DNA from: Pyrenophora tritici-repentis
Lineage: Eukaryota > Ascomycota > Dothideomycetes > Pleosporales > Pleosporaceae
Length of the DNA stretch: 64,000 bases
NCBI RefSeq assembly: GCF_003171515.1
Contig: NC_089391.1
Coordinates: 558,001-622,000 of the forward strand
Direction of reading: 5' to 3'
Shown here: in pieces, positions 18,905 to 54,706 of the stretch
Layout: each line of letters begins with the position of its first letter
How positions within the stretch are numbered: position 1 is the first letter of the stretch
Translations under genes and position numbers: made by a program
The notes under the pieces: model-generated
Databases searched by the model: none
What the model was told of the DNA's origin: nothing
Seen by the model: only the letters and a program-made list of their open reading frames with translations

Positions 18905-20730
18905 TGTCTTAAAGCAGCCCTTTTCACGACAGCTCTTGAATTCTTTCGCTGCTGCCGCTTTAAATTCCTATCCAAAAGGGTGCTTCTCTAGGTCTTTCCA
19001 TCTCTTTGGCGGAGGTGGAAGCTCATCCCTGTGTAGCCGTGATTTCTGTGGCTCTATTTGCTGAAGTGCTTCGGCGAACGCAATAAAGTACGTGCCGAGC
19101 GTCTTCCTCTGTCTTTTTCCCGTCAAAACGTTAGACTCACTAACCTGACCGCTAATCTCCTCACGTCTTGGAGCGTTGTTCAATCATCGATCTGGTGCCT
19201 CTGCTTCGGCTGGTATAGTCTCCCAGCCTCGCGGCATCTCGACTGTTTCCAGCTCGGGCTCGTGCTCGGGCTCGGGCTCGGACTCGGGCTCAGGCATCGA
19301 TTCTGGAGTGCTCTCAGGTGTTGGCAACGTCCGAGGCGTATCCTTGGCGTGGTCTGTTCGAGCGGCTTGCTCGGACCGGCTCGGACCACTCCAGTCTCTC
19401 TGTGCCGACTGTAGGAGCGCTTCTATCTCCTGATCGGTTTCCTCTAGTGGTTCTGGAACGTCCAGTATCGTCACCACCTCTCTCAAAGTCTGTCGATCTG
19501 GGTAGACAAGCTCAGTTCCATCATTAGACATGAAGACGACGTCTCTCGTCCTGAGAACTCGTCCTAATGCTGGCATCCATACTCGGTATATATTCGTGGA
19601 GTCATATCCAACCAGCTGTCCCATCAGCGCGCGAGATTCGAGCTTCTCTCCACGCTTCAGCTTGTTGTTTAGCACGTAGGCTCGTGCTCCCACAACATTG
19701 AGGTGAGCTGCCGATGGCTTCTGTTCACGTACAACCTCGTACGGAGTCTTCCATCCGAGTGATTCGATGGGTGTTCTGTTGAGTAGATAGACTGCTACTA
19801 GGCAGCACTCATTTGAGAGCTCCATTGGTAGTCCATCAATCCTGATCGCTCTCGCTCGGATCACGATCATCTTTCCGGCCTGTTCTGATAGGCCGTTCTG
19901 CTCCTCTGTGTACTCAGCTCGGGGTTCTATAATAATACCGAGATCTTTAAGCACATAGAGCAACTCGCTATAGCCGCGCTCGTTGTCAAGCTTCACGACC
20001 ACCACGACTGCGCCGAACTGGCGTTTAATCTTAGCCAATAGACGCACCACTGTGCGCTTAAGGGTGCCTGAGCTCTTGTCTGCTAGGCAGCATACCTCAT
20101 GCCACTTGCTATACTGACACACTGCGTGAAGCATCCATAGGTCTCCATTATAGCAGCGCTCGTTTCTTTCTCTCAGCTGCACTAACACAGTCCGCAACAA
20201 TCAATTAAGTGGGTCCTAGAAGGTTCAGATTGGATTGATTGATTACCGCTTTAAGCCTAGTAGTTACCTATAGGAGTTTAAGCCCTACCTAGATAGGTAA
20301 GTGGGTCTAGGAGAGTGACCGGATTGAATTGATTGTTGCGGAGTCTATGCACTAAGTCCATTCCTATTCGGTAGAACGGCTGTTCAGCTGGCTTACTTTG
20401 AGCTCCTCTGCTTACAAACTTGTGAAGCTTTGTTTTAATACAGACGTGACAGTCTGTCCATTTAGGGGCAATTGCTTGCTCCTCAACACTGATTCCGATC
20501 ACATGATCGTTCAAGTGCCCAACTGCTTTTCGGCTGATGTGGCCGAACATCCGATGAGCCGTGTCTTGACTGACTGAGAGATCCTTCCTCGGTTCCTTTG
20601 AGGGCTTGGTATATCGAGTCGCGTACGTAGAGAGTAGATCCAGCTCAACTTTCTTGTCTTTCTCCACGTCGACGAGCCAGTGGCCGTCTCTATACCAGAG
20701 ATGGCAACAAGCCGGCCAAGCTGCTATCAA
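18905..20730 (-). pseudogene. copia C integrase and linker
   Basis: Contains the pre-integrase H..H segment (AHRMFGHISRKAVGHL), CHVCIKTK zinc ligands and an integrase core with aspartate in KLDNERG and glutamate in NGLSEQAGK. LNRTPIESLGWKTPYEV follows, then an acidic EPEPEPE linker and a segment ending HPFG. A TAG (from CAG) near 18968 and the 162-bp MITE at 20186-20347 break the frame. Confidence 0.85.
20186..20347. mobile_element. 162-bp hAT-like MITE (copy 2) in copia C integrase
   Basis: Same ends and length as the copy at 6284-6445. Flanked by the 8-bp duplication TGCACTAA (20178-20185, 20348-20355). Confidence 0.92.
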
Positions 20731-26621: not shown

Positions 26622-29600
26622 ATGACCGATAGCTCGAGTTTAAGAGAAATATGGCACTTGAACAGCGATGTACCCACAGCTGTGGAGCGGTGCGTGCACG
26701 AGCTGTTTGCAGACCAGGCAAAAGAACAGCCTCAGGCGCCGGCCATCTGTGCGTGGGACGGCGAAATGACATATGGCGAGCTGGACGAGCTATCAAGCCG
26801 ACTAGCTAGGCATCTTGTTAAGGTGGGGGTAGAGGTGGAAGACGTTGTTCCTCTCTGCTTTGAGAAGTCAATGTGGACAGTGGTAGCTATGCTCGCTGTG
26901 CTCAAGGCTGGCGGCGCGTTCGCACCCCTTGATCCCGATTACCCAGCCAGCCGGCACGATGAGGTCTTCCGTCAGACTAAGGCCAGGGTAGTGCTAGCCT
27001 CAGACCAGCACGCGACGCTTTGCAACGGTAACAACCGCATTGTCGTGGTGGTTAGTAGGGCCTCTTTAGATGGATTGACAAGCGCAAGCGACAAGACCAA
27101 CGCGATAGCAAGGCCAAGTAATATTGCGTACGTCATGTTCACTTCAGGCAGCACAGGAACACCCAAGGGAGTCGTCTTAGAACACAGAGCAATTTCGACA
27201 AGCTGTCTCACCCATGGAGAGGCGTTTGGCTTCTCGTCTAGCACTCGAAGCCTTCAGTTTGCCGCTTACACCTTTGACGCGTGTATTACGGAGATTATTA
27301 CAACTCTCTTATTTGGCGCATGTATTTGCATTCCCTCTGAGTTGGATAGACGCAACGACTTATCGAATACTTCAAATGCCTTAGGAGTAAGCTGGGCATT
27401 GCTTACGCCAACGGTTGCACGAACACTTGACCCAAAAACAGTTTCATCGCTTAGAACCTTAGTGCTTGGGGGTGAGCAGGTAAACAGTATTGACTGGGAA
27501 AGGTGGAGTCATCTTGAAAAGCAGATCAATACGTATGGTCCTACAGAGTGCAGCGTTTGGTGCACATCACACTCTAATGCCGCTGGTTTCACGTCAGGAA
27601 CGATTGGAAGGCTAATTGCTTCTATGGGTTGGGTAGTGGATTCAAACGACCACAACAAGCTTGCCCCGCTCGGGTCGGTTGGCGAGCTGCTCGTCGAAGG
27701 GCCGATCCTGGCGCGTGGATACCTGGGCGACGCAGAGAAGACGGCGGCCGCCTTCATCCAAGACCCGACCTGGCTGTTGGAGGGCTCTGGAGAGCACGTA
27801 GGCCGACACGGGAGGCTGTACAAGACCGGCGACCTAGTACACTACGATGCAGACGGCAACCTGGTGTATGTGGGACGCAAGGACGTGCAGGTCAAGGTGC
27901 GCGGGCAGCGGGTGGAGTTGGGGGAGATTGAGCATCATGTGCGCGAGTGCATGCCGGAAGTGGAGCGTATGGCAGCAGAAGTAATCATGCCAGGAAACGA
28001 CAAAGACAAGGCGACTGTGGCCGTCTTTGTGCAACAGAAAGAGGAAGAGGCTTCCGCTGGAGACGGCTCCTCTGCACGGGTTTTCTTCCCCTCCCAGGTG
28101 GACAGCCAGCTCAGCCAGCGGCTGCCTAGCTACATGGTACCCGGAGTCTACTTTGCGGTCGCGCAGCTTCCCATGACAACGTCGGGCAAGACGGACCGCA
28201 AGCGGCTGCGCGAGATCGGGTCCGCGTTCTCAGCTCAACAGCTGGCAGAGCTACTCACACGAAGCCAGGGACCGAAGCGGCAGCCGTCGACAGAGCAGGA
28301 GAGGGCGCTGCAGAAACTGTGGGCGCGGGTTCTCGACATCGACGCCGACAGCATTGGGCTGGACGACAGTTTCTTTCGCCTAGGCGGCGACTCGATTGCG
28401 GCCATGAGGCTGGTGGCCGAGGCGCGTCAGGAGGCCATTCATCTCACGGTGGCAGGCGTCTTCCAGCACCCAAAGCTCGTTGACTTGGTTGCTTGGACTG
28501 AGGCAAAAGTTCCAGCGACAGCGCAAAGCATCGCCCCCTTCTCCCTACTCGACTCTGCCTCGGATGCAGACACAATACGCATCCAGGAAGAAGTGGCCGC
28601 CATCTGCGGCATAAACAGAGATCTTATTGAGGACATCTACCCGTGCTCACCGCTTCAGGAGGGCCTAATATCGCTCACGTCAAAGCGGGCGGGTGACTAC
28701 ATCATGCAGAGTGTACTAGAGCTGTCAGTCAACACAGACGAAAGCGCTCTACGAGCGGCTTGGGAGCAGGTTGTGAAGCAATCGGTGGTGCTGCGCACGC
28801 GCATCGTGCAGCACGGCCGATTGGGTCTTCTGCAGGCTGTGGTAGCAGGCGATATACAGTGGGCGGAAGCAGACCATCTGGGAACGTACCTGGCGGAGGA
28901 CAAAGCAGCGTCCATGCAGCTGGGCGATCGTCTGGCACGCTATACTTTAGTCAAGGAGCCAGAGGGTAGAAAGCGCTGGCTTGTGTGGACAATGCACCAC
29001 GCTCTGTACGACGGCTGGTCTCTGCCTCGCATCGTGACCACCGTAAAGAAAGCATACAATGGTGGTGTTCTTGAGCAGCGGCCAGGCTTTAACACCTTCA
29101 TCCGGTACCTTAGTCAGCAAGATCAGGAGGCCACTACCAACTACTGGCAAACCACACTCGCCGGCTGCGAGGCGACAATGTTCCCGTCACTTCCCCCATC
29201 AATACATCAGCCAGTCGCAGATGCGATATTGGAGCACCAATGTCCGCCGCTCCCCAGGACAATGGCATCCGATACCACTACATCAACGCTGATCCGCGCG
29301 GCGTGGGCCATCGTAGCTGGTAATTACACCAGGTCGGATGATGTCGTGTTTGGAGTTACAGTGACGGGTCGCAATGCACCAGTAGTAGGCATTGAAGCTA
29401 TAGTGGGCCCGGCAATTGCGACGGTGCCTGTGCGGGTGCGTTTGCCAGGAGACTGGACTGTACCAGCCCTCCTTGCTGCTGTGCAGCAACAGGCAACCGA
29501 GATGATCCCATACGAGCAAACAGGATTGCAGCGGATCGCCAAGATGGGAACGGATGCGCAGCACGCCTGTGGATTCCAAACGCTGCTGGTAGTGCAGCCA

Positions 29601-29870
29601 GCTGATGAAGATCTGGAAAGCGACAAGTCACTGGGAAGGTGGCAGACCAAGCCAGAGCTGCAGGACTTCACGACGTACGCACTGATGGTGCAGTGCACGC
29701 TGGCTGCAGAGCGAGTGCTCATCACTGTTAGCTTTGATCCACGAGTCATTGAGCAGTGGCGTGTGCAGAGGATGCTGTGTCAATTTAGCTCCGTCATGCA
29801 GCAGCTGGCGAGAGCGGACTTGAGCATCAAGGTCGATGATATTCATCTGCTTACACATGAAGATAGACAA
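26622..29870 (+). other. NRPS module 1 and following condensation domain: A1-T1-C1
   Basis: A1 about 26660-28210, T1 about 28290-28490 (LGGDSI at 28382), C1 about 28610-29860 with intact MHHALYDGW. Specificity-pocket residues alignable to GrsA: D235 A236 T239 V299 G301 T322 V330 W331 K517; position 278 was not assigned. No epimerisation domain, so residue 1 should remain L (or achiral). As a starter module it has no preceding C domain. Confidence 0.88.
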
Positions 29871-32800
29871 CAGCTGTGGACATGGAACAGCGATGTACCC
29901 ACAGCTGTGGAGCGGTGCGTGCACGAGCTGTTTGCAGACCAGGCAAAAGAACAGCCTCAGGCGCCGGCCATCTGTGCGTGGGACGGCGAAATGACATATG
30001 GCGAGCTGGACGAGCTATCAAGCCGACTAGCTAGGCATCTTGTTAAGGTGGGGGTAGAGGTGGAAGACGTTGTTCCTCTCTGCTTTGAGAAGTCAATGTG
30101 GACAGTGGTAGCTATGCTCGCTGTGCTCAAGGCTGGCGGCGCGTTCGCACCCCTTGATCCCGATTACCCAGCCAGCCGGCACGATGAGGTCTTCCGTCAG
30201 ACTAAGGCCAGGGTAGTGCTAGCCTCAGACCAGCACGCGACGCTTTGCAACGGTAACAACCGCATTGTCGTGGTGGTCAGCGAAGCAGCTATCCTTCAAC
30301 TATCCAGCGATGCCAGCAGGAGAAACCTTGTCCGGGCAAAAGCACAGCCAACTAACCCTGCCTACATCATCTTTACATCCGGCAGCACAGGAATACCCAA
30401 GGGTGTGGTAATTGAGCATCGGGCGGCTTCTACAAGCTGTTTAACACATGGGAAAGCGTTTAACCTCACGAAAAACGCAAGATTCTTTCAATTTGCCTCG
30501 TACACCTTTGACGTGTGCATCACGGAGATCATAACAACTCTCTTAATGGGAGGCAGAATTTGTGTCCCCGCAGAAAGCATGAAACTAGACCGTCTTGCCG
30601 AAACAATTACCCTTCTTAACGTTAATTGGGCATATCTTACGCCAACGGTTGCACGAACACTTGACCCAAAAACAGTTTCATCGCTTAGAACCTTAGTGTT
30701 TGGGGGTGAGCAGGTAAACAGTATTGACTGGGAAAAGTGGAGTCATCTTGAAAATCGGGTTAACGCTTATGGACCTACCGAGTGTAGTGTGATATGTAAC
30801 TCTTTTTCCGGTCTAGAAGGCTTCTACACAGGTTTAATTGGTAAGGCGATCGGGTCGGTCAGCTGGGTAGTGGATCCAAACGACCACAACAAGCTTGCCC
30901 CGCTCGGGTCGGTTGGCGAGCTGCTCGTCGAAGGGCCGATCCTGGCGCGTGGATACCTGGGCGACGCAGAGAAGACGGCGGCCGCCTTCATCCAAGACCC
31001 GACCTGGCTGTTGGAGGGCTCTGGAGAGCACGTAGGCCGACACGGGAGGCTGTACAAGACCGGCGACCTAGTACACTACGATGCAGACGGCAACCTGGTG
31101 TATGTGGGACGCAAGGACGTGCAGGTCAAGGTGCGCGGGCAGCGGGTGGAGTTGGGGAGATTGAGCATCATGTGCGCGAGTGCATGCCGGAAGTGGAGCG
31201 TATGGCAGCAGAAGTAATCATGCCAGGAAACGACAAAGACAAGGCGACTGTGGCCGTCTTTGTGCAACAGAAAGAGGAAGAGGCTTCCGCTGGAGACGGC
31301 TCCTCTGCACGGGTTTTCTTCCCCTCCCAGGTGGACAGCCAGCTCAGCCAGCGGCTGCCTAGCTACATGGTACCCGGAGTCTACTTTGCGGTCGCGCAGC
31401 TTCCCATGACAACGTCGGGCAAGACGGACCGCAAGCGGCTGCGCGAGATCGGGTCCGCGTTCTCAGCTCAACAGCTGGCAGAGCTACTCACACGAAGCCA
31501 GGGACCGAAGCGGCAGCCGTCGACAGAGCAGGAGAGGGCGCTGCAGAAACTGTGGGCGCGGGTTCTCGACATCGACGCCGACAGCATTGGGCTGGACGAC
31601 AGTTTCTTCCGCCTAGGCGGCGACTCTATCACAGCTATGCAGGTCTCTTCGAGCGCTCGTGCGGCTCACATCTCTATCTCGACTCACGATATTCTCCAGC
31701 ACAAAACCATTGGCCGTTTAGTTCGCCATATATCATTAAAGCCTGCTCCTTCTCAACTAGTCATCCAGGATCCAGTAAACAGGGGCTTTGGCCTAACGCC
31801 AATCCAGGAGCTGTACTTCCGGCTAGAGAGTAGCGGTAGAGCTTGCTTTGATCAATGCTTTTTACTGGAAGTTAGTAGCTCAGTAAACATGGAATCGTTG
31901 CGTATAGCGTTTAAAACCCTTGTTCAACGGCACTCTATCCTACGAGCTCAATTTAGCCAAAGAACTGGAGGTGGGTGGCAGCAGCACATTTGCGATCGCG
32001 CTGACGACTCCTTCACCATCGAGTACGTGCAATCCACGGATCAAGATGACTTTTTACGCGCTATGCTTCAGAGTCGGAGCCAGCTAGACATTCAGAAAGG
32101 ACCAATCTTAGCAGCAGCCTTGTTTGATGAGGACCAGCGCCAATTACTATTTATCACCGTTCACCATCTAGTAATTGATCTAGTCTCGTGGCGAGTGCTT
32201 CTTGAAGAGCTGGAGGACCTGCTCATTTCGCGGGAGCTTCCTGCTGCGCCTCCTATTCCCTTTCAGGCCTGGCAGGCTCTCCAAGCTAAACACGCTAACA
32301 CGCACGGGTGTTCTGGTGGCATAATCCAAGCTGAGATGGATTCTAAACAGCTAATACTCTCCTACTGGGGCGTACAGCCCGGGACTATCTTACACAGAAG
32401 TACAGTATCAAAGGGCTTTGCACTTGATAAGTGTACAACCTCTGCCATTCTTGGATCCTGCAACAACGCATTCCAAACACGTCCTGTAGAGCTAATTCTT
32501 TCTGCTCTAATTCACTCCTTTGCTGCTGCCTTCCCGGACCGAGCCCTGCCTACTATCTTCAACGAGAGCCACGGTCGCGAGACTTGGGACAGCGGCATTG
32601 ATCTTTCGCGAACTGTGGGATGGTTTACAAGCATGTTCCCAGTTCAAGTGCCAAACTATACTAGGCATAATATGCTCAATGTCATCCGCCATACCAAAGA
32701 CAGCATGCGCCAGTTTAACGACAATGGCAGGTCATACTTTGCTTCACAGTTCACAGATAACGATACTGCCAATACATTCGCATCTATGTTCCCAGTAGAG

Positions 32801-35800
32801 GTAATGTTTAACTACCAAGGCGCATACCAGCAACTTGAGCGCAACGATTCGCTGTTTAAGAATCTGCTAATTCCGGACGGTTGCGAGCCAGCATCCTTGT
32901 TAGAGACGCCGCGGTTCGCTTTAATTGATGTGTCTGTGGTTATCGACAGAGGCTGCATACATGTAGCTGTTATAAGCGACAGTAGAGTAAAGCACCAGCA
33001 GCAGATAGCTAGCTGGATTGAGCAGTACGAGGTGGCTTTGGTGGAAATGGCTGCCATTCTTCAAAAGCGGCATCCAGAATGGACGCTAAGTGACTTACCA
33101 CTAGCCTTCCAGACCTACCAGGATCTGGATCGCTTCCAGAAAGATACGCTTGCAGGGCTTCATATTCAGCCCAGAGAAGTTGAGGACGTCTTTCCATGCT
33201 CACCTATGCAGGAAGGCATCCTTGTTAGTCAGAGCAAGGATTCAGATGCATACTGGGTGTCGCTTGTCTTTGAAGCAGTATCGACTCAGCACAGCCAGGT
33301 CAGCTGCATTCAGCTGCAGCAAGCGTGGAAGGATGTTGTTCGGCGGCACTCGCTCCTACGGACACTGCTCGTCAATAATGTGCCTGGGTGTGCGGGAACC
33401 ATGAATGTGGTGCTGAAAGATCCACAGCCGAGCATCTCGTTCTTCCAAGCAGCAGGCGACACAGTTACTCTTGAAGTGTTCCGCAATCACCGAAGCATGT
33501 CAGGACAGCAGAGCACGTTAGTCCAGCAAGAGAGTGGCCTACAGCATCACATGTCCATCTGCCAGCTTGACAATGGAAAGGTCTACCTCTGCCTAGACAT
33601 TAACCACGCTATCTTTGATGCTCACTCTCGGGGCATCGTCTTACGCGATCTGCAGACGGCATACAGTGCTAAGCTTAATCCAGATAGTGCACTGTTTAAA
33701 GACGTTGTCTCGTATCTAGCCCAGCAGGAAGAGGATACAGCGCGCGCTTACTGGGCGAAATATCTGGACGGGGTTGAGCCATGTGCATTTCCCTCAATAG
33801 CAAACGCCGACGACGGGGATTGTAGGGGTAGAACAGTACACGTTCCTGAAATTGACGTGAGCATCATCCATGCATTCTGTCATACATGGGACGTCACGCC
33901 AGCTACCATCATCCAGACAGCATGGGCTTTGGTGTTAGGCCAATACACCCGATCAATGACCCCGTGCTTTGGCATGCTCTCCTCAGGACGAGACTTTCCG
34001 ATTGCGGAGGTAGACAAGATCTTTGGCCCGCTCATCACTATACTCCCATGCAGGGTTTATCTAGGCAACGAGCAGACTGTGCTAGATGTCCTAAGAGCAG
34101 TGCAGCACGACTACACCAGCAGCTTGCCACATCAGGGCTTCTCGCTCGCTCGCGTACATAGCATGCTTGGGCTTGGAGCAGGCGCTTTATTTAACACAGT
34201 GCTATCGCTCCAGCGGATTGACGACGCAGTGGCAGTTGGCACTACTGGGGTTATTTTCCACATAGAGGAGGGAGCGGATCCTACAGAGGTAAATTGACGG
34301 ACAAGCAGTGGTCTAACTGTCTAGCTAACGCGCTTTCTCTAGTATGATGTTAATATCGGTGTCGCATATAACCGGTTGACGATGGAAATTGAGATGCAAT
34401 ATAAGACCCGTTGCATGAGCGGATCACAAGCAAAGAACGTAGCAGACAGCTTCAGTAAAGCAATCCTTAGCATAGTAGGAAGGCCGCACTCTATGCTGGG
34501 TGGTCTAGGCATCCTAGGAGATGCACAAAAGCGCCAGCTGTGGACATGGAACAGCGATATACCCACAGCTGTGGAGCGGTGCGTGCACGAGCTGTTTGCA
34601 GACCAGGCAAAAGAACAGCCTCAGGCGCCGGCCATCTGTGCGTGGGACGGCGAAATGACATATGGCGAGCTGGACGAGCTATCAAGCCGACTAGCTAGGC
34701 ATCTTGTTAAGGTGGGGTAGAGGTGGAAGACGTTGTTCCTCTCTGCTTTGAGAAGTCAATGTGGACAGTGGTAGCTATGCTCGCTGTGCTCAAGGCTGGC
34801 GGCGCGTTCGCACCCCTTGATCCCGATTACCCAGCCAGCCGGCACGATGAGGTCTTCCGTCAGACTAAGGCCAGGGTAGTGCTAGCCTCAGACCAGCACG
34901 CGACGCTTTGCAACGGTAACAACCGCATTGTCGTGGTGGTTAGTAGGGCCTCTTTAGATGGATTGACAAGCGCAAGCGACAAGACCAACGCGATAGCAAG
35001 GCCAAGTAATATTGCGTACGTCATGTTCACTTCAGGCAGCACAGGAACACCCAAGGGAGTCGTCTTAGAACACAGAGCAATTTCGACAAGCTATCTCACC
35101 CATGGAGAGGCGTTTGGCTTCTCGTCTAGCACTCGAAGCCTTCAGTTTGCCGCTTACACCTTTGACGCGTGTATTACGGAGATTATTACAACTCTCTTAT
35201 TTGGCGCATGTATTTGCATTCCCTCTGAGTTGGATAGACGCAACGACTTATCGAATACTTCAAATGCCTTAGGAGTAAGCTGGGCATTGCTTACGCCAAC
35301 GGTTGCACGAACACTTGACCCAAAAACAGTTTCATCGCTTAGAACCTTAGTGTTTGGGGGTGAGCAGGTAAACAGTATTGACTGGGAAAAGTGGAGTCAT
35401 CTTGAAAATCGGGTTAACGCTTATGGACCTACCGAGTGTAGTGTGATATGTAACTCTTTTTCCGGTCTAGAAGGCTTCTACACAGGTTTAATTGGTAAGG
35501 CGATCGGGTCGGTCAGCTGGGTAGTGGATCCAAACGACCACAACAAGCTTGCCCCGCTCGGGTCGGTTGGCGAGCTGCTCGTCGAAGGGCCGATCCTGGC
35601 GCGTGGATACCTGGGCGACGCAGAGAAGACGGCGGCCGCCTTCATCCAAGACCCGACCTGGCTGTTGGAGGGCTCTGGAGAGCACGTAGGCCGACACGGG
35701 AGGCTGTACAAGACCGGCGACCTAGTACACTACGATGCAGACGGCAACCTGGTGTATGTGGGACGCAAGGACGTGCAGGTCAAGGTGCGCGGGCAGCGGG

Positions 35801-38800
35801 TGGAGTTGGGGGAGATTGAGCATCATGTGCGCGAGTGCATGCCGGAAGTGGAGCGTATGGCAGCAGAAGTAATCATGCCAGGAAACGACAAAGACAAGGC
35901 GACTGTGGCCGTCTTTGTGCAACAGAAAGAGGAAGAGGCTTCCGCTGGAGACGGCTCCTCTGCACGGGTTTTCTTCCCCTCCCAGGTGGACAGCCAGCTC
36001 AGCCAGCGGCTGCCTAGCTACATGGTACCCGGAGTCTACTTTGCGGTCGCGCAGCTTCCCATGACAACGTCGGGCAAGACGGACCGCAAGCGGCTGCGCG
36101 AGATCGGGTCCGCGTTCTCAGCTCAACAGCTGGCAGAGCTACTCACACGAAGCCAGGGACCGAAGCGGCAGCCGTCGACAGAGCAGGAGAGGGCGCTGCA
36201 GAAACTGTGGGCGCGGGTTCTCGACATCGACGCCGACAGCATTGGGCTGGACGACAGTTTCTTCCGCCTAGGCGGCGACTCTATCACAGCTATGCAGGTC
36301 TCTTCGAGCGCTCGTGCGGCTCACATCTCTATCTCGACTCACGATATTCTCCAGCACAAAACCATTGGCCGTTTAGTTCGCCATATATCATTAAAGCCTG
36401 CTCCTTCTCAACTAGTCATCCAGGATCCAGTAAACAGGGGCTTTGGCCTAACGCCAATCCAGGAGCTGTACTTCCGGCTAGAGAGTAGCGGTAGAGCTTG
36501 CTTTGATCAATGCTTTTTACTGGAAGTTAGTAGCTCAGTAAACATGGAATCGTTGCGTATAGCGTTTAAAACCCTTGTTCAACGGCACTCTATCCTACGA
36601 GCTCAATTTAGCCAAAGAACTGGAGGTGGGTGGCAGCAGCACATTTGCGATCGCGCTGACGACTCCTTCACCATCGAGTACGTGCAATCCACGGATCAAG
36701 ATGACTTTTTACGCGCTATGCTTCAGAGTCGGAGCCAGCTAGACATTCAGAAAGGACCAATCTTAGCAGCAGCCTTGTTTGATGAGGACCAGCGCCAATT
36801 ACTATTTATCACCGTTCACCATCTAGTAATTGATCTAGTCTCGTGGCGAGTGCTTCTTGAAGAGCTGGAGGACCTGCTCATTTCGCGGGAGCTTCCTGCT
36901 GCGCCTCCTATTCCCTTTCAGGCCTGGCAGGCTCTCCAAGCTAAACACGCTAACACGCACGGGTGTTCTGGTGGCATAATCCAAGCTGAGATGGATTCTA
37001 AACAGCTAATACTCTCCTACTGGGGCGTACAGCCCGGGACTATCTTACACAGAAGTACAGTATCAAAGGGCTTTGCACTTGATAAGTGTACAACCTCTGC
37101 CATTCTTGGATCCTGCAACAACGCATTCCAAACACGTCCTGTAGAGCTAATTCTTTCTGCTCTAATTCACTCCTTTGCTGCTGCCTTCCCGGACCGAGCC
37201 CTGCCTACTATCTTCAACGAGAGCCACGGTCGCGAGACTTGGGACAGCGGCATTGATCTTTCGCGAACTGTGGGATGGTTTACAAGCATGTTCCCAGTTC
37301 AAGTGCCAAACTATACTAGGCATAATATGCTCAATGTCATCCGCCATACCAAAGACAGCATGCGCCAGTTTAACGACAATGGCAGGTCATACTTTGCTTC
37401 ACAGTTCACAGATAACGATACTGCCAATACATTCGCATCTATGTTCCCAGTAGAGGTAATGTTTAACTACCAAGGCGCATACCAGCAACTTGAGCGCAAC
37501 GATTCGCTGTTTAAGAATCTGCTAATTCCGGACGGTTGCGAGCCAGCATCCTTGTTAGAGACGCCGCGGTTCGCTTTAATTGATGTGTCTGTGGTTATCG
37601 ACAGAGGCTGCATACATGTAGCTGTTATAAGCGACAGTAGAGTAAAGCACCAGCAGCAGATAGCTAGCTGGATTGAGCAGTACGAGGTGGCTTTGGTGGA
37701 AATGGCTGCCATTCTTCAAAAGCGGCATCCAGAATGGACGCTAAGTGACTTACCACTAGCCTTCCAGACCTACCAGGATCTGGATCGCTTCCAGAAAGAT
37801 ACGCTTGCAGGGCTTCATATTCAGCCCAGAGAAGTTGAGGACGTCTTTCCATGCTCACCTATGCAGGAAGGCATCCTTGTTAGTCAGAGCAAGGATTCAG
37901 ATGCATACTGGGTGTCGCTTGTCTTTGAAGCAGTATCGACTCAGCACAGCCAGGTCAGCTGCATTCAGCTGCAGCAAGCGTGGAAGGATGTTGTTCGGCG
38001 GCACTCGCTCCTACGGACACTGCTCGTCAATAATGTGCCTGGGTGTGCGGGAACCATGAATGTGGTGCTGAAAGATCCACAGCCGAGCATCTCGTTCTTC
38101 CAAGCAGCAGGCGACACAGTTACTCTTGAAGTGTTCCGCAATCACCGAAGCATGTCAGGACAGCAGAGCACGTTAGTCCAGCAAGAGAGTGGCCTACAGC
38201 ATCACATGTCCATCTGCCAGCTTGACAATGGAAAGGTCTACCTCTGCCTAGACATTAACCACGCTATCTTTGATGCTCACTCTCGGGGCATCGTCTTACG
38301 CGATCTGCAGACGGCATACAGTGCTAAGCTTAATCCAGATAGTGCACTGTTTAAAGACGTTGTCTCGTATCTAGCCCAGCAGGAAGAGGATACAGCGCGC
38401 GCTTACTGGGCGAAATATCTGGACGGGGTTGAGCCATGTGCATTTCCCTCAATAGCAAACGCCGACGACGGGGATTGTAGGGGTAGAACAGTACACGTTC
38501 CTGAAATTGACGTGAGCATCATCCATGCATTCTGTCATACATGGGACGTCACGCCAGCTACCATCATCCAGACAGCATGGGCTTTGGTGTTAGGCCAATA
38601 CACCCGATCAATGACCCCGTGCTTTGGCATGCTCTCCTCAGGACGAGACTTTCCGATTGCGGAGGTAGACAAGATCTTTGGCCCGCTCATCACTATACTC
38701 CCATGCAGGGTTTATCTAGGCAACGAGCAGACTGTGCTAGATGTCCTAAGAGCAGTGCAGCACGACTACACCAGCAGCTTGCCACATCAGGGCTTCTCGC

Positions 38801-41073
38801 TCGCTCGCGTACATAGCATGCTTGGGCTTGGAGCAGGCGCTTTATTTAACACAATGCTATCGCTCCAGCGGATTGACGACGCAGTGGCAGTTGGCACTAC
38901 TGGGGTTATTTTCCACATAGAGGAGGGAGCGGATCCTACAGAGGTAAATTGACGGACAAGCAGTGGTCTAACTGTCTAGCTAACGCGCTTTCTCTAGTAT
39001 GATGTTAATATCGGTGTCGCATATAACCGGTTGACGATGGAAATTGAGATGCAATATAAGACCCGTTGCATGAGCGGATCACAAGCAAAGAACGTAGCAG
39101 ACAGCTTCAGTAAAGCAATCCTTAGCATAGTAGGAAGGCCGCACTCTATGCTGGGTGGTCTAGGCATCCTAGGAGATGCACAAAAGCGCCAGCTGTGGAC
39201 ATGGAACAGCGATATACCCACAGCTGTGGAGCGGTGCGTGCACGAGCTGTTTGCAGACCAGGCAAAAGAACAGCCTCAGGCGCCGGCCATCTGTGCGTGG
39301 GACGGCGAAATGACATATGGCGAGCTGGACGAGCTATCAAGCCGACTAGCTAGGCATCTTGTTAAGGTGGGGGTAGAGGTGGAAGACGTTGTTCCTCTCT
39401 GCTTTGAGAAGTCAATGTGGACAGTGGTAGCTATGCTCGCTGTGCTCAAGGCTGGCGGCGCGTTCGCACCCCTTGATCCCGATTACCCAGCCAGCCGGCA
39501 CGATGAGGTCTTCCGTCAGACTAAGGCCAGGGTAGTGCTAGCCTCAGACCAGCACGCGACGCTTTGCAACGGTAACAACCGCATTGTCGTGGTGGTTAGT
39601 AGGGCCTCTTTAGATGGATTGACAAGCGCAAGCGACAAGACCAACGCGATAGCAAGGCCAAGTAATATTGCGTACGTCATGTTCACTTCAGGCAGCACAG
39701 GAACACCCAAGGGAGTCGTCTTAGAACACAGAGCAATTTCGACAAGCTGTCTCACCCATGGAGAGGCGTTTGGCTTCTCGTCTAGCACTCGAAGCCTTCA
39801 GTTTGCCGCTTACACCTTTGACGCGTGTATTACGGAGATTATTACAACTCTCTTATTTGGCGCATGTATTTGCATTCCCTCTGAGTTGGATAGACGCAAC
39901 GACTTATCGAATACTTCAAATGCCTTAGGAGTAAGCTGGGCATTGCTTACGCCAACGGTTGCACGAACACTTGACCCAAAAACAGTTTCATCGCTTAGAA
40001 CCTTAGTGCTTGGGGGTGAGCAGGTAAACAGTATTGACTGGGAAAGGTGGAGTCATCTTGAAAAGCAGATCAATACGTATGGTCCTACAGAGTGCAGCGT
40101 TTGGTGCACATCACACTCTAATGCCGCTGGTTTCACGTCAGGAACGATTGGAAGGCTAATTGCTTCTATGGGTTGGGTAGTGGATTCAAACGACCACAAC
40201 AAGCTTGCCCCGCTCGGGTCGGTTGGCGAGCTGCTCGTCGAAGGGCCGATCCTGGCGCGTGGATACCTGGGCGACGCAGAGAAGACGGCGGCCGCCTTCA
40301 TCCAAGACCCGACCTGGCTGTTGGAGGGCTCTGGAGAGCACGTAGGCCGACACGGGAGGCTGTACAAGACCGGCGACCTAGTACACTACGATGCAGACGG
40401 CAACCTGGTGTATGTGGGACGCAAGGACGTGCAGGTCAAGGTGCGCGGGCAGCGGGTGGAGTTGGGGGAGATTGAGCATCATGTGCGCGAGTGCATGCCG
40501 GAAGTGGAGCGTATGGCAGCAGAAGTAATCATGCCAGGAAACGACAAAGACAAGGCGACTGTGGCCGTCTTTGTGCAACAGAAAGAGGAAGAGGCTTCCG
40601 CTGGAGACGGCTCCTCTGCACGGGTTTTCTTCCCCTCCCAGGTGGACAGCCAGCTCAGCCAGCGGCTGCCTAGCTACATGGTACCCGGAGTCTACTTTGC
40701 GGTCGCGCAGCTTCCCATGACAACGTCGGGCAAGACGGACCGCAAGCGGCTGCGCGAGATCGGGTCCGCGTTCTCAGCTCAACAGCTGGCAGAGCTACTC
40801 ACACGAAGCCAGGGACTGAAGCGGCAGCCGTCGACAGAGCAGGAGAGGGCGCTGCAGAAACTGTGGGCGCGGGTGCTCGACATCGACGCCGACAGCATTG
40901 GGCTGGACGACAGTTTCTTTCGCCTAGGCGGCGACTCGATTGCGGCCATGAGGCTGGTGGCCGAGGCGCGTCAGGAGGCCATTCACTGCACTTTCGTCGA
41001 TATCTTTCATAACCCTTCGTTGCGTGCATTAGCACACAGGATCATTCATCCGGTTAATCACAACCACACATAG
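26622..41073 (+). CDS. four-module nonribosomal peptide synthetase (two frameshifts, two introns)
   Basis: Giant cytosolic enzyme of about 4,800 residues assembling a short peptide. Order: A1-T1-C1-A2-T2-E1-C2-A3-T3-E2-C3-A4-T4. Start: MTDSSSLREI at 26622, directly before the A domain. Introns 34289-34342 and 38944-38997 (GTAAAT...CTAG) keep frame. All A domains have FTSGSTG, YGPTE, YKTGDL and GKTDRK; all T domains have LGGDSI. E domains after T2 and T3 predict D-residues at positions 2 and 3. One G is missing near 31156 (A2) and near 34716 (A3), so the sequence as given cannot make a full protein; assembly error or real mutation. It ends 30 or so residues after T4 with no release domain. Product unknown. 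Confidence 0.93.
29871..34520 (+). other. NRPS module 2 and following condensation domain: A2-T2-E1-C2
   Basis: A2 about 29875-31440 with the one-base loss near 31156, T2 LGGDSI at 31613, E1 about 31780-33110 (HHLVIDLVSW), C2 about 33160-34510. Pocket residues: D V T, V299 G301 A322 V330 I331 K517. In C2 the catalytic motif reads NHAIFDA instead of HHxxxDG; the second His and the Asp remain. An intron (34289-34342) lies near the end of C2. Confidence 0.86.
30691..39990 (+). repeat. tandem duplication inside the NRPS (unit about 4655 bp)
   Basis: Sequence from the middle of A2 to the middle of A3 is repeated from the middle of A3 to the middle of A4 with a constant offset of 4654-4655 bases, including the intron. 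Only isolated differences were seen, for example G/A at about 34199/38854 (Val/Met) and Tyr versus Cys in ISTSxLTHG. Very recent duplication or ongoing gene conversion. Confidence 0.93.
34521..39175 (+). other. NRPS module 3 and following condensation domain: hybrid A3-T3-E2-C3
   Basis: A3 about 34540-36100. Up to about 35290 it equals A4 (SRASLDGL..., FDACITEI, VSWALL) and from 35353 it equals A2 (VFGGEQ, VNAYGPTECSVICNS). The pocket is therefore mixed: D A T with V299 G301 A322 V330 I331 K517. T3, E2 and C3 repeat T2, E1 and C2 almost base for base. A one-base loss near 34716 (GGGG versus GGGGG) breaks the frame at its start. Confidence 0.88.
39176..41073 (+). other. NRPS module 4: A4-T4 (C-terminus)
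   Basis: A4 about 39190-40760, indistinguishable from A1 in its pocket (D A T, V G, T322, V330 W331, K517). T4 LGGDSI near 40926. The last 25 or so residues (CTFVDIFHNPSLRALAHR) differ from T1 and end in NHNHT then TAG. No terminal condensation, thioesterase or reductase domain follows within 1 kb. Confidence 0.87.
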
Positions 41074-43407: not shown

Positions 43408-43599
43408 TGTTGGAAGGTCTATAGCACTAGTGCTGAAAGGAAATAACGATAACTAGGAATGCATTCTGTTCGGTGATGGTGATTGATTGTCTACGAACAT
43501 AGCTGCTACGAAGGTATACCTAAGCTCTGCGCAAGGTGGGCCGAAGTCGGGCCGAAGTGTCCAGCAGCCGACGTCTCTACCGATACTCACGATCCGACA
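43408..43599. repeat. 192-bp solo LTR (copia A family) in LINE B
   Basis: TGTTGG...CCGACA flanked by GGTGT (43403-43407, 43600-43604). Nearly identical to the copia A 5' LTR at 4220-4411. Confidence 0.95.
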
Positions 43600-43604
43600 G
43601 GTGT

Positions 43605-45661
43605 CCCACCACTTCGTAAATAATTTGGCGGCCTCAGCCTTGGCTATACCGTTTGTTGGGTCAGTGCGGCACCCTAGAGAGTAGTGCGGCGCTATGAGGG
43701 TGTGTCTGGGAATGGTAGGAAGAATCAACCCAAGTCGCTGGACTTTGGAGTGTGGCTTCTGCAAACCTCCAGCTCCCCTGCCCTTCGGTATCACCGAGAT
43801 CTTGATCCTGGCTGTAAGTGGGTGGTTCTTATCGACTACTTGCAGATGCAGAGCGAATCTCAGCTTTGCTTCTTCTAGCATAATGAGTGCTGATGGTAAG
43901 CCGGCGTCTCGAAAGAGTGCCCATCCTGGATAGGTTTTCCAGGCAGGGAGGATAGCGCGAGCCGCGATGGTGAGTGTCTGGTTGAGGGCTTTGAGGTGCC
44001 AGCTAATCCTAGTGCTGACTACGGGCGGTTGGTCCGATCGGTTGGTCAGAGGGTTCTTGGTGCGGCCTTCAAACCATGCTTCTGCTCCGTAGAGGAGACA
44101 TGGCATTATGCAGGTAGTGACTGCTTTGCGGAGGGCTGAGGCTGGGGGGCCATTAACTGTGTTGGCAAGACTACGGATGTGATGGGCAACTTTGCGGGCT
44201 GTCGCTGCTCTCGTTTCAACGTGTCTTTTGAAGTTGAGCTTTCGATCAAACCAGACCCCCAGCCATCGGCAGGCGGGTTGGACTCCGTCGTCCTGATCTG
44301 TAATTGGTGTAATGGTGAGGGAGTCGTCCACAACACAGGGCGGGGAATAGTTATCCCATTGCCTAGTGAGGTGCATCATTTCCAACTTTTCTGGTGCGAA
44401 GGCAACCTTGTTTGCTGCACCCCACTCGTTGATAGCTCTGACATCTTCTGCCAGCAGGCGAACGTTTTCATCCAGAGAGTTCGAGGCCCGGTATATGCAG
44501 ACGTCGTCAGCATACCCGAAGCGGCGGGTTGTGTCCTGGTTTAGATGCTCTGCTAGGTATAGTGTGTAGAGGACTGGGGACAGTGGTGATCCTTGGGGTG
44601 TTCCGCAGGCCACGGTGTAGCACTGGGTGGTTGCCTTGCCTAATCTAACCCTGACTTTGCGATCTGTGAGGAAACTGTTGACAAATTTGAGCACTAGGTC
44701 TGGCCAGCCCTGCTTTGCCATGCGGACGAGTAGCCGGTTCTTAAGAAGTGCGTCAAAGGCTCCTTGAACGTCCATAGTAACCATAGTCACCTTCTTGCCC
44801 AATGCCCAAGCTCTTTGTGTATCGTGTGTGAAGGAGGCCAGCAGGTCCATTGCAGAGCGTTTCGGGAGCGCGCCTACATGCTGGGGGCTGAGTATCTCGT
44901 GAGTCATTGCGGTCCAGGCCAGCCGTCTTGCTACAACCCGTTCAAGTCCTTTGCCTAGGCAGGATAGGAGGGCTATTGGACGCATGGATCTTGGGGAGGT
45001 GCGGTCCTTCTTGCCGACCTTTGGTATCATGGCGACTTCGGCCGTTTTCCAGGCTGTGGGGAAGTAGCAGAGCTCAAGGCACTTCTGAAAGATAGAGCGG
45101 ATGTGGGTCCTGACCTGAGCCCAGCAGGTCTTGAGAAGCCGGACGGTGATTCGATCGGTGCCTGGCGAGGTGCTGGACACCCCAATAGTGCTTCTCTCGA
45201 CTTCTTCCATAGGGATGTGGGTGTCCCATGGCAGTGTACCCGCCGGTGTTTCGGTAGGCCATACTGGCTCCGGCAGGTCGTCCTCAGCGCTGAACCGGTC
45301 CAGGATTTCCACCCGCAGGGCTTCGGCTTTTTCTAGTGGGTCTGAGATGGTTTGGTTGTTCACGATAAGTGGGATGTCCTGCTGTCCTGGGGTAAGTTTA
45401 TGCCAACCTAGCAGGCTATATAACTCCTCATCTGTAGTGATATTGTTAATCCGGTTCGCCCAGTACTCCTTCTTCGCTTTCCGCACGACGGCAAGGAACT
45501 CCCTGGTTTCGATTGGGACCGTCCCTGGTTCTGCTAAGTTCCTGGCAGCCCGGTGCCGGCTGTGGGCTTCTACGCAATCTTCTGTCCACCATGGTGCTGA
45601 GTGACCTTTTGCCCTGTCTGGTGTGCCAGCGCCCTTGAGCGCGGCCCATAGGGTTCTTTCT
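43605..45661 (-). pseudogene. LINE B reverse transcriptase
   Basis: Non-LTR RT: PIALLSCLGKGLERVVARRL, FTHDTQRAW, VTMDVQGAFDA, GTPQGSPLSPVLY, FGYADDVCIY and WLGVWFDRKLNFKRHV. The catalytic FADD-type motif is YADD. The thumb ends LLYGAEAWFEGRTKNP. Cut on the 5' side by copia D. Confidence 0.9.
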
Positions 45662-45814
45662 TGTAACGGTTTGGGACTTGCCAAGACCGACTTGGGTGAG
45701 AGTTGGGTACGGCCATCGCTACCACACTTTCTCATCGCACACACCTATATAGCTGCAGTTCCTCCATAGCTACACAATGCAACGCAGTCCTCCTCCTCTC
45801 CTCACACCGTTACA

Positions 45815-45832
45815 GTTATGAGCCCGGAAGCC
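45815..45832 (+). promoter_or_regulatory. primer-binding site (half initiator Met-tRNA type)
   Basis: GTTATGAGCCCGG directly after the 5' LTR is complementary to the anticodon arm of initiator Met tRNA (GGGCTCATAAC). The same sequence abuts the copia C LTR at about 22672-22684. Drosophila copia and Ty5 are known to prime from this internal tRNA site. Confidence 0.75.
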
Positions 45833-48308: not shown

Positions 48309-49129
48309 TCAGCTTTGTTGATCACGGCAGCTGGGGGGGAGTGTAACGGTTTGGGACTTGCCAAGACCGACTTGGGTGAGAGTTGGGTACGGCCATCGCT
48401 ACCACACTTTCTCATCGCACACACCTATATAGCTGCAGTTCCTCCATAGCTACACAATGCAACGCAGTCCTCCTCCTCTCCTCACACCGTTACATTTCTA
48501 AGCTGGCAATAGATGACTCAATGTCTGCTTTCGTGTTGATAGGGCTGATTGGGTGTGCTTGGAGGTGAAGTTCAACTAGAGCGTTAAACTGGTGCAGGCG
48601 TCTTGTTGGCACCCTGTAGTGGAATTGGTCTAGAGGTTGGCGCCCTCTAGCGGGGATTGTGGTGAGTAAGGTAAAGTGGTCAGAGCCACAGTGTAGGTCC
48701 TCTGCTACTTCAGTTGTGGCAAAGGGGATATTCGAGAAGGTAAGGTCTATGACATGCCCAGCCTGGTGTGTGGCTTCGCCCGGCTCTCCAATGAAGCTCA
48801 TGTTGTTGTTAATTGACCACTGATTCAGTTCAATGCCCCCGTTGCGGGCGTCTGTGCCAGGCTCAAAGGCTGGGTGGCGGGCGTTGAAGTCCCCCCTACA
48901 ATAGATAAGGGTGGGGGAGTGCAGTTAGTGATGTATTGTAAGACTCCAGTGCTGGCAGGTTAGCGGTAAGCGTTAAGAATTGAGTAGCCGTTCACCTTAA
49001 CCCAGAGCAGGTCTCGGTTAATTTTTGGGAAGATGACTTCAGACTCAAGTCTATAGTCTTTACGGACATAGGTCATAACCCGAGGGCGGAGTGCTCTTCT
49101 AGTTTTAGGGTCATTATGGCCCCAGTTAG

Positions 49130-52100: not shown

Positions 52101-52233
52101 AGCACCCAAGCTACCAATCAAGCTGACAACTTTCCGCCAAGCCAATTCAATCAATCCAGCCAAATCTCATACAAACAGCCAATCAATCAAGCCGGGGGCT
52201 GTCAGCTTGCTTGATTGATTGATCTCAGGTGTG
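49130..52233 (+). mobile_element. hAT element C, decayed with RIP-like stops
   Basis: hAT transposase from MPPKKRVSDS (49536) to the dimerisation motif SIPASSCECERVFSELGD (about 51790-51845) and a stop at 52055. Many in-frame TAG codons occupy positions where the intact relative (element D) has Trp or Gln. Near-terminal sequences CACACCTGAGATCAATCAAGC (49130) and its approximate inverse (52206-52233) may be the element ends; the left and right flanks also share a 40-bp repeat (49172, 52136). Confidence 0.78.
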
Positions 52234-54706
52234 ATCATTCCAATAGGTGCCTCGCCGTCGACACTAAAGCCAGCTCTTTGCCATCCCCGTACGCACTGTA
52301 TTGCTGCTAGAAGCTGAGGTTTTATACAGCGTCGCCGCGGCTCCAGCAGATCGCCTAGCTCACTAAACATGCGCTCACAGTCACAGCTTGACGCTGGGAT
52401 AGAGAGCACGTCAAGCGCAAGCTTGCTGAGGCTAGGGTAGCGATCGCGCACTGCTACCCAGTATTTGATGGGGTTGTTTGCGTACTCTGTGCCTCGCTCT
52501 GCCGCTGGCTCGCTGCGCTTCCACCTCGTATACTCGTCCTCCGCCGCGCTGGCCTCGTCGCTGGAGCTGGGGTTAATGAGCGCGTCGATCGCCTCGTCCA
52601 TGTCGTTAGAGATTACCCTTAATGGCCTCACTGCGCGCGGCAACGTGTCGTACTGCGCCCAGAGCGCGCGAAAGCTGCTGTTGTTAGTCGCGATCCAGTC
52701 AGGCTTGTCACTCCACACTTTGTCAAGGTAGTGCTTATAGTACGGGTGAAGTATTGTGGCAGCGTAGTACGCTGGCGAGTCGTCTAGCTTGCTGTAGTAG
52801 TCGTCGGCCTTCGCCCAGGCAGCGCGCAGGTTGGTTGCAAGGTGATCTTCGGGCGCCTCGGGGTGCGCGTTATAGTCGACTGCGGCGTACGAGTTAACGC
52901 GCTGCTCATAGTACGAGAGCAGGTACTCAAACACTGGTATAACCTCAGCGATAGACCCAGAGCCACCGCTTTTACCGCGTCCCTCAAGGCGCTCTGTCGC
53001 TGTCTTCAGCGGCTTCAGCACATCCATGTACTCTGTTATCACCGCCCAGTCAGCAGCTCCGAGGCCGTCAGATCGCATCCACGACTGCGCGACAGGCTGC
53101 TTGTTGCCACGACTCTCAGCCCACGTGTCCTCATCTCGCACTCGCCGTATATGGTGAAGGGAGTATGCGTTAATAGCGGACTGCAGCTTAACAGCGCGCT
53201 CAAAGCATGAGTAGTAAGAGTTCCAGCGTGTGACGACAGGCTTAACAGGCTCTAGTACTTTGCGCTCTTCAGCCAACGCGTCAGCAGGCAGCTCCTTGTG
53301 CGCGAGGCGCTGAAAGTCCTCAAAAAGCTTGTGTTGCTGCGGCGTTTTAATATAGCTGATGACGCTGAGCAGCACGCCTAACGGGCCAACACGCCTCCAC
53401 TCCTCCATGAAGTCGTGCTCGTCGTGAAGTTCGCGTGCGTCGTTATCAAAGGCGTCGCCATCCTTGCCCCAGAGGAGCGTTTGGCCAACAAGGTTGAGCG
53501 TGTGAGGACCGCAGCGGAGGCGTCGATGAGCAGCGTTAAAGCCGTACTTGTGTGCTAATACTTCAACAGTACAATCGTTGTTGCTCGCGTTATCAAGCAC
53601 GAAGTAGCCAATTGATTGCGCGTTAATGCCAAAATCCTGGAGCGTCTCTATAACGACTTCAGCCATCATCTCCCACTGTGAGCACCACTTAGCTGTGGCA
53701 GCGCGATAGGCACGTCTCGCAGCTCTGCCTTGTTATCAACGTAGTGCGCAACGACGCCCAAGAAGCCACGTTTGCCACCCTTTGTCGTCCACCCGTCAAA
53801 GCTAATGTGGATTTTACTGAGCGCCCGCGACAGCTGCTGGACGACACGCGGCTTCAGGTAGTCGTACAGGCGCACGACAAAGCGAGTAACACTTACATGA
53901 GACGCCCAAAGCGCTGCCTCAGCCTGCGGGTTAGCAGCTGCAATGAGGCGCCGGAATGCAGGGCTCTCAAACTCAGAGAGTGGGTGGTTGTTCTCAACAA
54001 GCCAGCTTACAGCCTCCATTCGAAAGCGCTGAGTATTGAAACCGAGGAGCTCGTTAGCAGCAGTTTGCGACACCTTGCCGCTGTTTTGCTTAAGCATGCG
54101 CTCTAACCAGCTAACCTTGGTGCTGGCAGCAGTCTTGCCAGGTGGGCTCTGGCCATGGCCGCGTTTCTGCTCCTCCAGGTGTCGCGCCGCAGCCGTGGTT
54201 GAGCGCGTTGTCTCGTATATCCCGCTCATCGGAGTCATCTTATGGTCGTAGCAGTAACGGCACACAAAGAAGAGTTTGCTTGGATCTCTCAGCAACGCGA
54301 CGCGCCAGCCGTAGCGATAGATCCAGCTTTTGCGCGACGACTGCGACGAAGCTGGGCGTACGTAACGCGGTAAAAGGCTGAAGTCGAGGCCTTCAAAATC
54401 GTCCATCAGGCTCGCGTCAAACTCCTCATATGTAGCCACCTCATCAGCTGCCGACGACGCTGCTGTTGCCTGCTCGCTGCCCTCAGTGGGTGCGACAACA
54501 GTGTCTTCAGGCCGCGCCTTACGCAGCCGCGACTCAAAATTTAAGGCCTGAGACGCCTCGCTAATAGCTCTACGAGGCGACTGACGCGGTTGCGATAGCT
54601 GGCTCTCAAAGAGTATAGGCTGGCTGGCGAAGCCGCTGGCAGCGGGCCTTCTGGCTCGTTTGCTTGGGGTGGCAGCAGCGTCGTCGACGCGTCTTTTGGG
54701 CGGCAT
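52167..54706 (-). pseudogene. hAT element D transposase, one frameshift from intact
   Basis: Two abutting minus-strand frames. 54706-53666 (346 codons): MPPKRRVDD, BED-like zinc finger (SWIYRYGW, CRYCYDH, HLEEQKRGH) and the first catalytic region (HISFDGWTTKGGKRG). 53669-52167 (500 codons): YFVLDNASNND, RRLRCGPHTLNL, TRWNSYYSCF and the dimerisation motif SIPASSCDCERMFSELGD. They join if one G is restored in the GGG run near 53682. The C-terminal 20 codons run into the flanking repeat and may not be native. Domestic function unlikely. Confidence 0.85.

What the first reader, a model, noticed from the sequence alone, without database searches (positions are those of the whole stretch)
34521..36100. 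Chimeric adenylation domain made by unequal crossover in an NRPS
The N-terminal half of A3 matches A4 (and A1), while its C-terminal half matches A2, with the switch inside a stretch identical in all copies at 35290-35352. This is the product expected if a three-module gene (A1, A2, A4) recombined unequally between the middles of A2 and A4, which also explains the 4655-bp duplication of T-E-C. The join falls between the pocket residues 235/236/239 and 322/330/331, so A3 has a mixed code (D A T with A V I) unlike either parent. This is a snapshot of natural module gain with a possible new substrate specificity.
Basis: partly seen in the sequence, partly recalled or inferred. Interest (0 to 1): 0.92.

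Follow-up and report, generated by a model that had tools for sequence, protein, structure and literature searches.

The report
Recombinant half-and-half adenylation domain in NRPS
In a wheat leaf-spot fungus, a peptide-making enzyme gene has gained a module whose amino-acid-selecting domain is stitched from the front of one neighbour and the back of another; the stitch is real, the process is of a known kind, and the gene may not be working.

Summary
A3 matches A4 up to 35,289 and A2 from 35,353; 189 of 190 informative sites fit one switch. The two 4.65-kb units differ by 2 substitutions and 2 one-base length differences. Unequal crossover in a three-module ancestor is the simplest cause. Corrections: (1) A2 already carried a 119-bp A1/A4-type patch across the A4-A5 spacer, so the type seam in A3 is 35,408/35,409, just before motif A5. 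(3) The mixed code DATLVGAVI occurs exactly in 1 of 84 other aligned domains. (4) The assembled frame is broken in A2 and A3 and no condensation-type release domain was found after A4-T, so 'new specificity' is untested; similar breaks in the paralogue look partly like residual assembly error. Domain swapping in this species' NRPSs was published in 2013 (PMC3538342). A precise new example of a known process.

The parts
26697..28301 (+). A1 adenylation domain (core type X; code DATLVGTVW)
   Evidence: tblastn and Pfam PF00501; code
28287..28541 (+). T1 carrier domain
28602..29906 (+). C1 condensation domain
   Evidence: PF00668
29922..31534 (+). A2 adenylation domain (core type Y, DVTYVGAVI), back-half parent; assembled frame interrupted once near 31.15 kb
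30636..30754 (+). 119-bp A1/A4-type patch inside A2 (A3 coordinates 35290-35408), where the exchange fell
   Evidence: 98.3% to A4, against 60.3% on its left and 56.6% on its right
31520..31756 (+). T2 carrier domain
31772..33091 (+). E domain, first copy
   Evidence: condensation superfamily stretch
33152..34570 (+). C2 condensation domain, first copy
34289..34342 (+). 54-bp intron, first copy (GT...AG)
   Evidence: identical to second copy
34586..36189 (+). A3 hybrid adenylation domain (DATLVGAVI); assembled frame interrupted once near 34.71 kb
35290..35352 (+). interval of the A4-to-A2 switch in A3 (63 bp identical in all four copies)
35408..35409 (+). type seam X to Y in A3, about 7 bp before motif A5 (NAYGPTE at 35416)
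36175..36411 (+). T3 carrier domain
36427..37746 (+). E domain, second copy
37807..39225 (+). C2 condensation domain, second copy
38944..38997 (+). 54-bp intron, second copy
   Evidence: spliced out in public protein P0245
39241..40845 (+). A4 adenylation domain (type X, DATLVGTVW), front-half parent
40831..41073 (+). terminal T domain and stop; no condensation domain listed after it in the window

Best explanation
The gene had three modules, A1-T-C1 / A2-T-E-C2 / A4-T. An earlier short gene conversion put about 119 bp of A1/A4-type sequence into the A4-A5 spacer of A2 (inferred from the patch). Two copies of the gene then paired out of register, A4 on one with A2 on the other, and exchanged within that patch (35,290-35,352). 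The product has an extra T-E-C2 unit and a hybrid A3: up to about residue 299 from A4, from residue 300 on from A2, so that pocket residues 235-299 come from A4, 301 is the same in all copies, and 322-331 come from A2. The junction sequence and the identity of the units are shown; the exchange mechanism, the order of events and any change of substrate are inferred. If translated whole, A3 would keep a native C-A linker and Asub-T interface and select with a DATLVG/AVI pocket.
For: 189 of 190 informative sites fit one switch. Diagnostic sites outside the core point to A4 in front and not A4 behind. The units differ by 4 changes in 4.65 kb, introns included. A2's front core has no other copy above 74% among the 7 matches found in the genome, so A2 is unlikely to be the late recipient. 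A3/A4 differences cluster as expected: 1 substitution in 767 bp up to 35,352, then 2 in the next 56 bp, which are A2's (if the 3 were spread evenly the chance is about 0.013, my arithmetic). The same kind of hybrid exists in the paralogous array (c19 against c03 and c18: 281 informative sites, seam 35,409|35,415, 2 exceptions, 2 sites like neither parent). dN/dS between the two loci is 0.15-0.26 in the 6 comparisons of corresponding pieces, so both loci were long under purifying selection.
Against: The 63-bp tract is much shorter than the other long A2/A4 identical tracts in the domain (356, 275 and 352 bp), so a single exchange there was a priori less likely than one in a flank. No three-module allele was found. 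A1 and A4 are near identical over the whole A domain although their T domains diverge, and flanks are homogenised in the array too, so gene conversion is active and could mimic part of this.
Confidence: 0.7

Rival explanations
1. Two steps: a plain duplication of the A2 module by exchange in the long identical flanks, then gene conversion of the front half of the new A domain by A4 or A1.
For: Identical flank tracts of 356, 275 and 352 bp offer far more room for exchange than 63 bp; A1 and A4 are themselves almost identical over the A domain while their T domains diverge, so conversion happens here.
Against: Needs one more event.
Confidence: 0.16
2. Polarity reversed: the A3-type hybrid is the older domain (compare c19), and A2 is a copy of it that received a new front core.
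For: A2 and A3 share the X-to-Y seam at 35,408/35,409, and c19 in the paralogous array has its seam at 35,410-35,414.
Against: A donor for A2's front core was not found in the genome (best 74% of 7 matches) and would have had to act after a duplication with only 2 substitutions in 4.65 kb; the A3/A4 differences cluster to the right of the switch.
Confidence: 0.08
3. Assembly artefact: a mis-join in a repeat.
For: Tandem near-identical units; one-base frame breaks that may be residual read error in repeats.
Against: The units carry substitutions of their own (34,199/38,854 and 35,093/39,749). An overlap error would be expected to switch in the long identical flanks, not in a 63-bp island (inference). 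The M4 genome paper reports PacBio reads, Illumina data and optical mapping (PMC5913888, passages).
Confidence: 0.06

Closest known systems
Acore subdomain exchange in bacterial NRPSs (Baunach et al. 2021, PMC8097286; section 6 and passages read)
   Same: Recombination inside the Acore, native C-A linker and Asub-T interface kept, many possible breakpoints
   Different: Fungal gene; here the exchange also added a module and split the pocket between two resident parents
A-domain recombination hotspots between motifs A2-A4 and from close to A5 (Calcott et al. 2020, PMC7486941; passages read)
   Same: The divergent core here starts at 34,941, before motif A3, and the type seam at 35,408/35,409 lies just before A5; one boundary tested in the paper, A322, is at that motif
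   Different: The paper surveyed three bacterial genera; its own partial A-domain swaps gave no visible product
[quoted passage not shown] tritici-repentis NRPSs PTRG_10433/10437 (PMC3538342; passages and section 25 part 1 read)
   Same: Same species; [quoted passage not shown] the C3 array here is probably this locus (inference)
   Different: What I read describes whole domains and modules, not a breakpoint inside an A domain, and I could not match this window's locus to a gene named there
McyB/McyC hybrid A domain of microcystin synthetase (as described in a passage of PMC8097286)
   Same: Part of one resident A domain recombined into another, giving a hybrid A domain
   Different: Cyanobacterial; linked there to relaxed specificity and product diversity; no module gain mentioned in the passage

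Membership tests
Natural A-domain (Acore) subdomain recombination | Breakpoints inside Acore between homologous A domains | tested here: met
Natural A-domain (Acore) subdomain recombination | C-A linker and Asub-T interface stay native | tested here: met
   A3's front flank and preceding C domain are as in A4; from 35,353 through T-E-C as in A2
Natural A-domain (Acore) subdomain recombination | Altered substrate or product | not testable with these tools
   only the code could be read
Tandem module duplication by unequal crossover | Direct repeats of one period with a hybrid at the junction | tested here: met
Tandem module duplication by unequal crossover | Pre-duplication (three-module) allele | tested here: inconclusive
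   protein searches see only proteins of 0.55-1.75 times the query length and list 120 hits each; the only close one is from this assembly; its 17 member sequences could not be read
Working fungal NRPS | Continuous coding frame apart from introns | tested here: not met
   assembled frame interrupted in A2 and in A3; may be assembly error
Working fungal NRPS | Terminal release domain (terminal C, TE or R) | tested here: inconclusive
   no PF00668 match after window 39,195 among the 82 listed (90 of 93 candidates scored) and the last frame ends at T; TE and reductase families were not searched

The most novel reading that the evidence does not exclude
P. tritici-repentis keeps a recombining reserve of A domains: within each of two paralogous NRPS loci the flanks of most A domains are homogenised to near identity while the substrate-pocket cores stay different, so that exchanges repeatedly fall at the edge of motif A5 and make half-pocket hybrids (A3 here, c19 in the C3 array). 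This would be a eukaryotic counterpart of bacterial Acore shuffling, caught at under 0.1% divergence and coupled to module gain.
Probability: 0.25. Interest if true: 0.65.

Novelty: new member of a known kind. Interest (0 to 1): 0.45.

Why it matters
It is an unusually clean record of one recombination event that both adds an NRPS module and makes a chimeric A domain, with both parents still beside it and under 0.1% divergence between the units. Whether an A-domain pocket can be split and still work is a live question in NRPS engineering (partial swaps failed in PMC7486941, passages); natural hybrids with nearly the same boundary in two loci are test cases. It also suggests that the sub-domain exchange described in bacteria occurs in a fungus whose NRPS content is reported to differ between isolates (PMC3538342).

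Tried and rejected
Looked for an orthologue or three-module ancestor among public proteins (120 hits listed of 4,139, 441 and 6,030): the best listed identities are 69%, 71% and 75%, apart from P0245 (98% over 40% of the query). G000 is stated to have no relatives held, so no other fungal genome was searched. Of 189 A-domain cores found in 240 public proteins, 84 at 48% identity or more were aligned and sorted by nearest type in front and back core; many got the flag HYB, but differences of a few percent at 50-70% identity carry no signal and I do not use them. A1 as the front parent: disfavoured by the single site 34,559. RIP: only 2 substitutions separate the units, so no test was possible; PMC5913888 and PMC3538342 (passages) say RIP is weak in this species. 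The pan-genome paper PMC9594970 was searched for NRPS terms in its main text: none of the NRPS terms occurs. PMC7232245 (passages) reports NRPS expansion in Pyrenophora but nothing on this hybrid in what I saw. No structure was predicted, since a model would not show activity. No substrates were assigned to the codes.
Full report
What is there. The window is bases 558,001-622,000 of contig C2 of a 40.9-Mb, 41-contig genome. The contig lengths 5,077,074 (C2) and 3,658,030 (C3) equal the longest-contig lengths listed for two NCBI proteins of Pyrenophora tritici-repentis, one of them named PtrM4_078100, and a 699-aa protein of that species matches contig C10 at 100%. The organism is therefore taken as P. 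tritici-repentis, isolate M4, the wheat tan spot fungus. The M4 paper gives the same 40.9 Mb but 50 contigs with a largest of 7 Mb (PMC5913888, passages), against 41 contigs and a C1 of 9.9 Mb here, so this is presumably a later, scaffolded version. On the plus strand, 26,622-41,073, lies an NRPS with domains A1-T-C1-A2-T-E-C2-A3-T-E-C2-A4-T. The stops at 34,297 and 38,952 lie inside two identical 54-bp introns; NCBI protein P0245 splices out the second. Two further frame changes, in A2 near 31.15 kb and in A3 near 34.71 kb, are one-base length differences against the other copies.

The observation. All of it checks. A3 equals A1/A4 up to 35,289, all copies are identical at 35,290-35,352, and A3 equals A2 from 35,353. 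With A4 and A2 as parents, 190 informative sites give one switch and 1 exception; with A1 and A2, 189 sites and 1 exception. The exception lies at about 35,806-35,808, at A2's length difference, and is an alignment effect. The two units differ at 4 places in 4.65 kb: 2 substitutions and the 2 length differences.

A correction to the geometry. A2 is not a pure second type. Its segment at A3 coordinates 35,290-35,408 is 98.3% identical to A4, while the segments to the left (34,941-35,289) and right (35,409-35,530) are 60.3% and 56.6%. A2 thus holds a 119-bp A1/A4-type patch in the A4-A5 spacer, most simply an older gene conversion. The exchange fell in that patch. In terms of sequence type, A3 changes from X to Y at 35,408/35,409, directly before motif A5 at 35,416. 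Pocket residues 235-299 come from A4, 301 is the same in all, and 322-331 come from A2 (position numbering recalled from the literature).

The wider picture. The same genome has a paralogous array on C3 (1,124-1,162 and 1,194-1,229 kb) with 19 A domains, the tenth of which is split by 32.8 kb; of 5 long ORFs scanned in that stretch, 2 are Tc5-like transposases, 1 Copia-type gag, 1 hAT-like and 1 without a match. In the 110-column identity tables the flanks of the window's four A domains are 98-100% alike, as are those of 16 of the 19 array domains (c01, c16 and c17 differ); between the loci the front flank is 75-77% and the back flank mostly 81-96% (75% at one window for c03/c10). The divergent core begins at 34,941 in the window and 34,945 in the array, and ends at 35,530 and 35,774. 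The last A domain of the array, c19, is also a hybrid: front as c03/c10 (the type of A1/A4), back as the majority type. Against c03 and c18: 281 informative sites, seam 35,409|35,415, 2 exceptions and 2 sites like neither parent; against c10 and c11 278 sites and 2 exceptions; against c03 and c12 280 sites and 3 exceptions. Among the 23 A domains in those tables only A3 and c19 change type between front and back core; finer mosaics such as A2's patch were not looked for elsewhere. c01, c16 and c17 are diverged but join the common sequence at 36,087, 36,003 and 36,003, close to motif A10.

Is it working? Against: two interrupted frames and no condensation domain listed after A4-T. For: dN/dS between the loci is 0.15-0.26 in the 6 comparisons of corresponding pieces (C1, E, C2, A front flank, X core front and back); comparisons between unlike core types gave 0.09-0.49 or were saturated. 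The frame interruptions may not be real. In the 8 T-E-C units of the array there are 9 one-base length differences and only 4 substitutions, and 7 of the 9 lie beside runs of the same base. In 13 majority-type A domains there are 8 one-base and 1 longer length differences against 82 substitutions; the 8 sit in 4 copies, and only 1 of the 8 lies beside a run. In 7 C domains there is 1 against 3; two visibly broken C copies (after c01 and c14) and the diverged one after c16 were left out of that count. The excess in T-E-C and the clustering in few copies fit residual read error in repeats; the A-domain counts are less clear. Other NRPS genes of the genome have long open frames (6,042, 5,820, 5,146 and 4,701 aa), though shorter and stop-containing pieces lie beside the second. 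On the other side, P0245 starts inside A3 past the break and stands for 17 member sequences; if these come from other isolates, the A3 break could be shared and real.

Specificity. A1 and A4 read DATLVGTVW, A2 DVTYVGAVI, A3 DATLVGAVI, c19 DATLVGGVL. Among 84 other aligned cores (some of the same species), 1 has exactly A3's code and 8 have DATLVG in front. So the mixed code occurs elsewhere and need not mean a new substrate.

What is known. Recombination in bacterial NRPSs mainly hits Acore and leaves linker and Asub-T interface intact (PMC8097286, passages and section 6). Hotspots lie between A2 and A4 and from near A5 (PMC7486941, passages). Tandem duplication and recombination of whole modules in fungi is described (PMC2823734, passages and section 31). 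[quoted passage not shown]). Seven paper searches listed no paper that, by its title and abstract start, treats a within-A-domain hybrid in this species; only the papers named here were opened.

Noticed in passing
G000:C3:1226651-1228254 (L011): c19, the last A domain of the paralogous array, is a separate half-core hybrid with its seam just before motif A5.
   Followed up: yes
G000:C3:1161774-1194532 (L005-L008): A 32.8-kb stretch with Tc5-like, Copia-like and hAT-like genes splits an A domain of a giant 19-A-domain NRPS array.
   Followed up: partly
G000:C3:1124153-1125751 and 1216896-1221779: A domains c01, c16 and c17 are strongly diverged but join the shared sequence close to motif A10, as if whole A domains had been swapped there.
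   Followed up: partly
G000:C3:1143386-1150836 and 1204331-1213864: One-base length differences cluster in a few near-identical repeat copies, a hint of residual assembly error in repeats.
   Followed up: partly
window 43453-45744 (-), 6376-8532 (-), 19184-20200 (-), 52167-53669 (-): The NRPS sits among transposable-element genes (RVT_1, Copia-type RVT_2, retroviral integrase-like and hAT dimerisation domains).
   Followed up: no
window 45662-45823 and 48342-48503: Two copies of a 162-nt direct repeat, 98% identical, 2,680 bp apart.
   Followed up: no
G000, best match C2:594160-598191: A P. tritici-repentis protein named HC-toxin synthetase (P0166) matches this genome at 46% over nearly its whole length at best, with shorter pieces up to 63%, so NRPS content may differ between isolates.
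   Followed up: no
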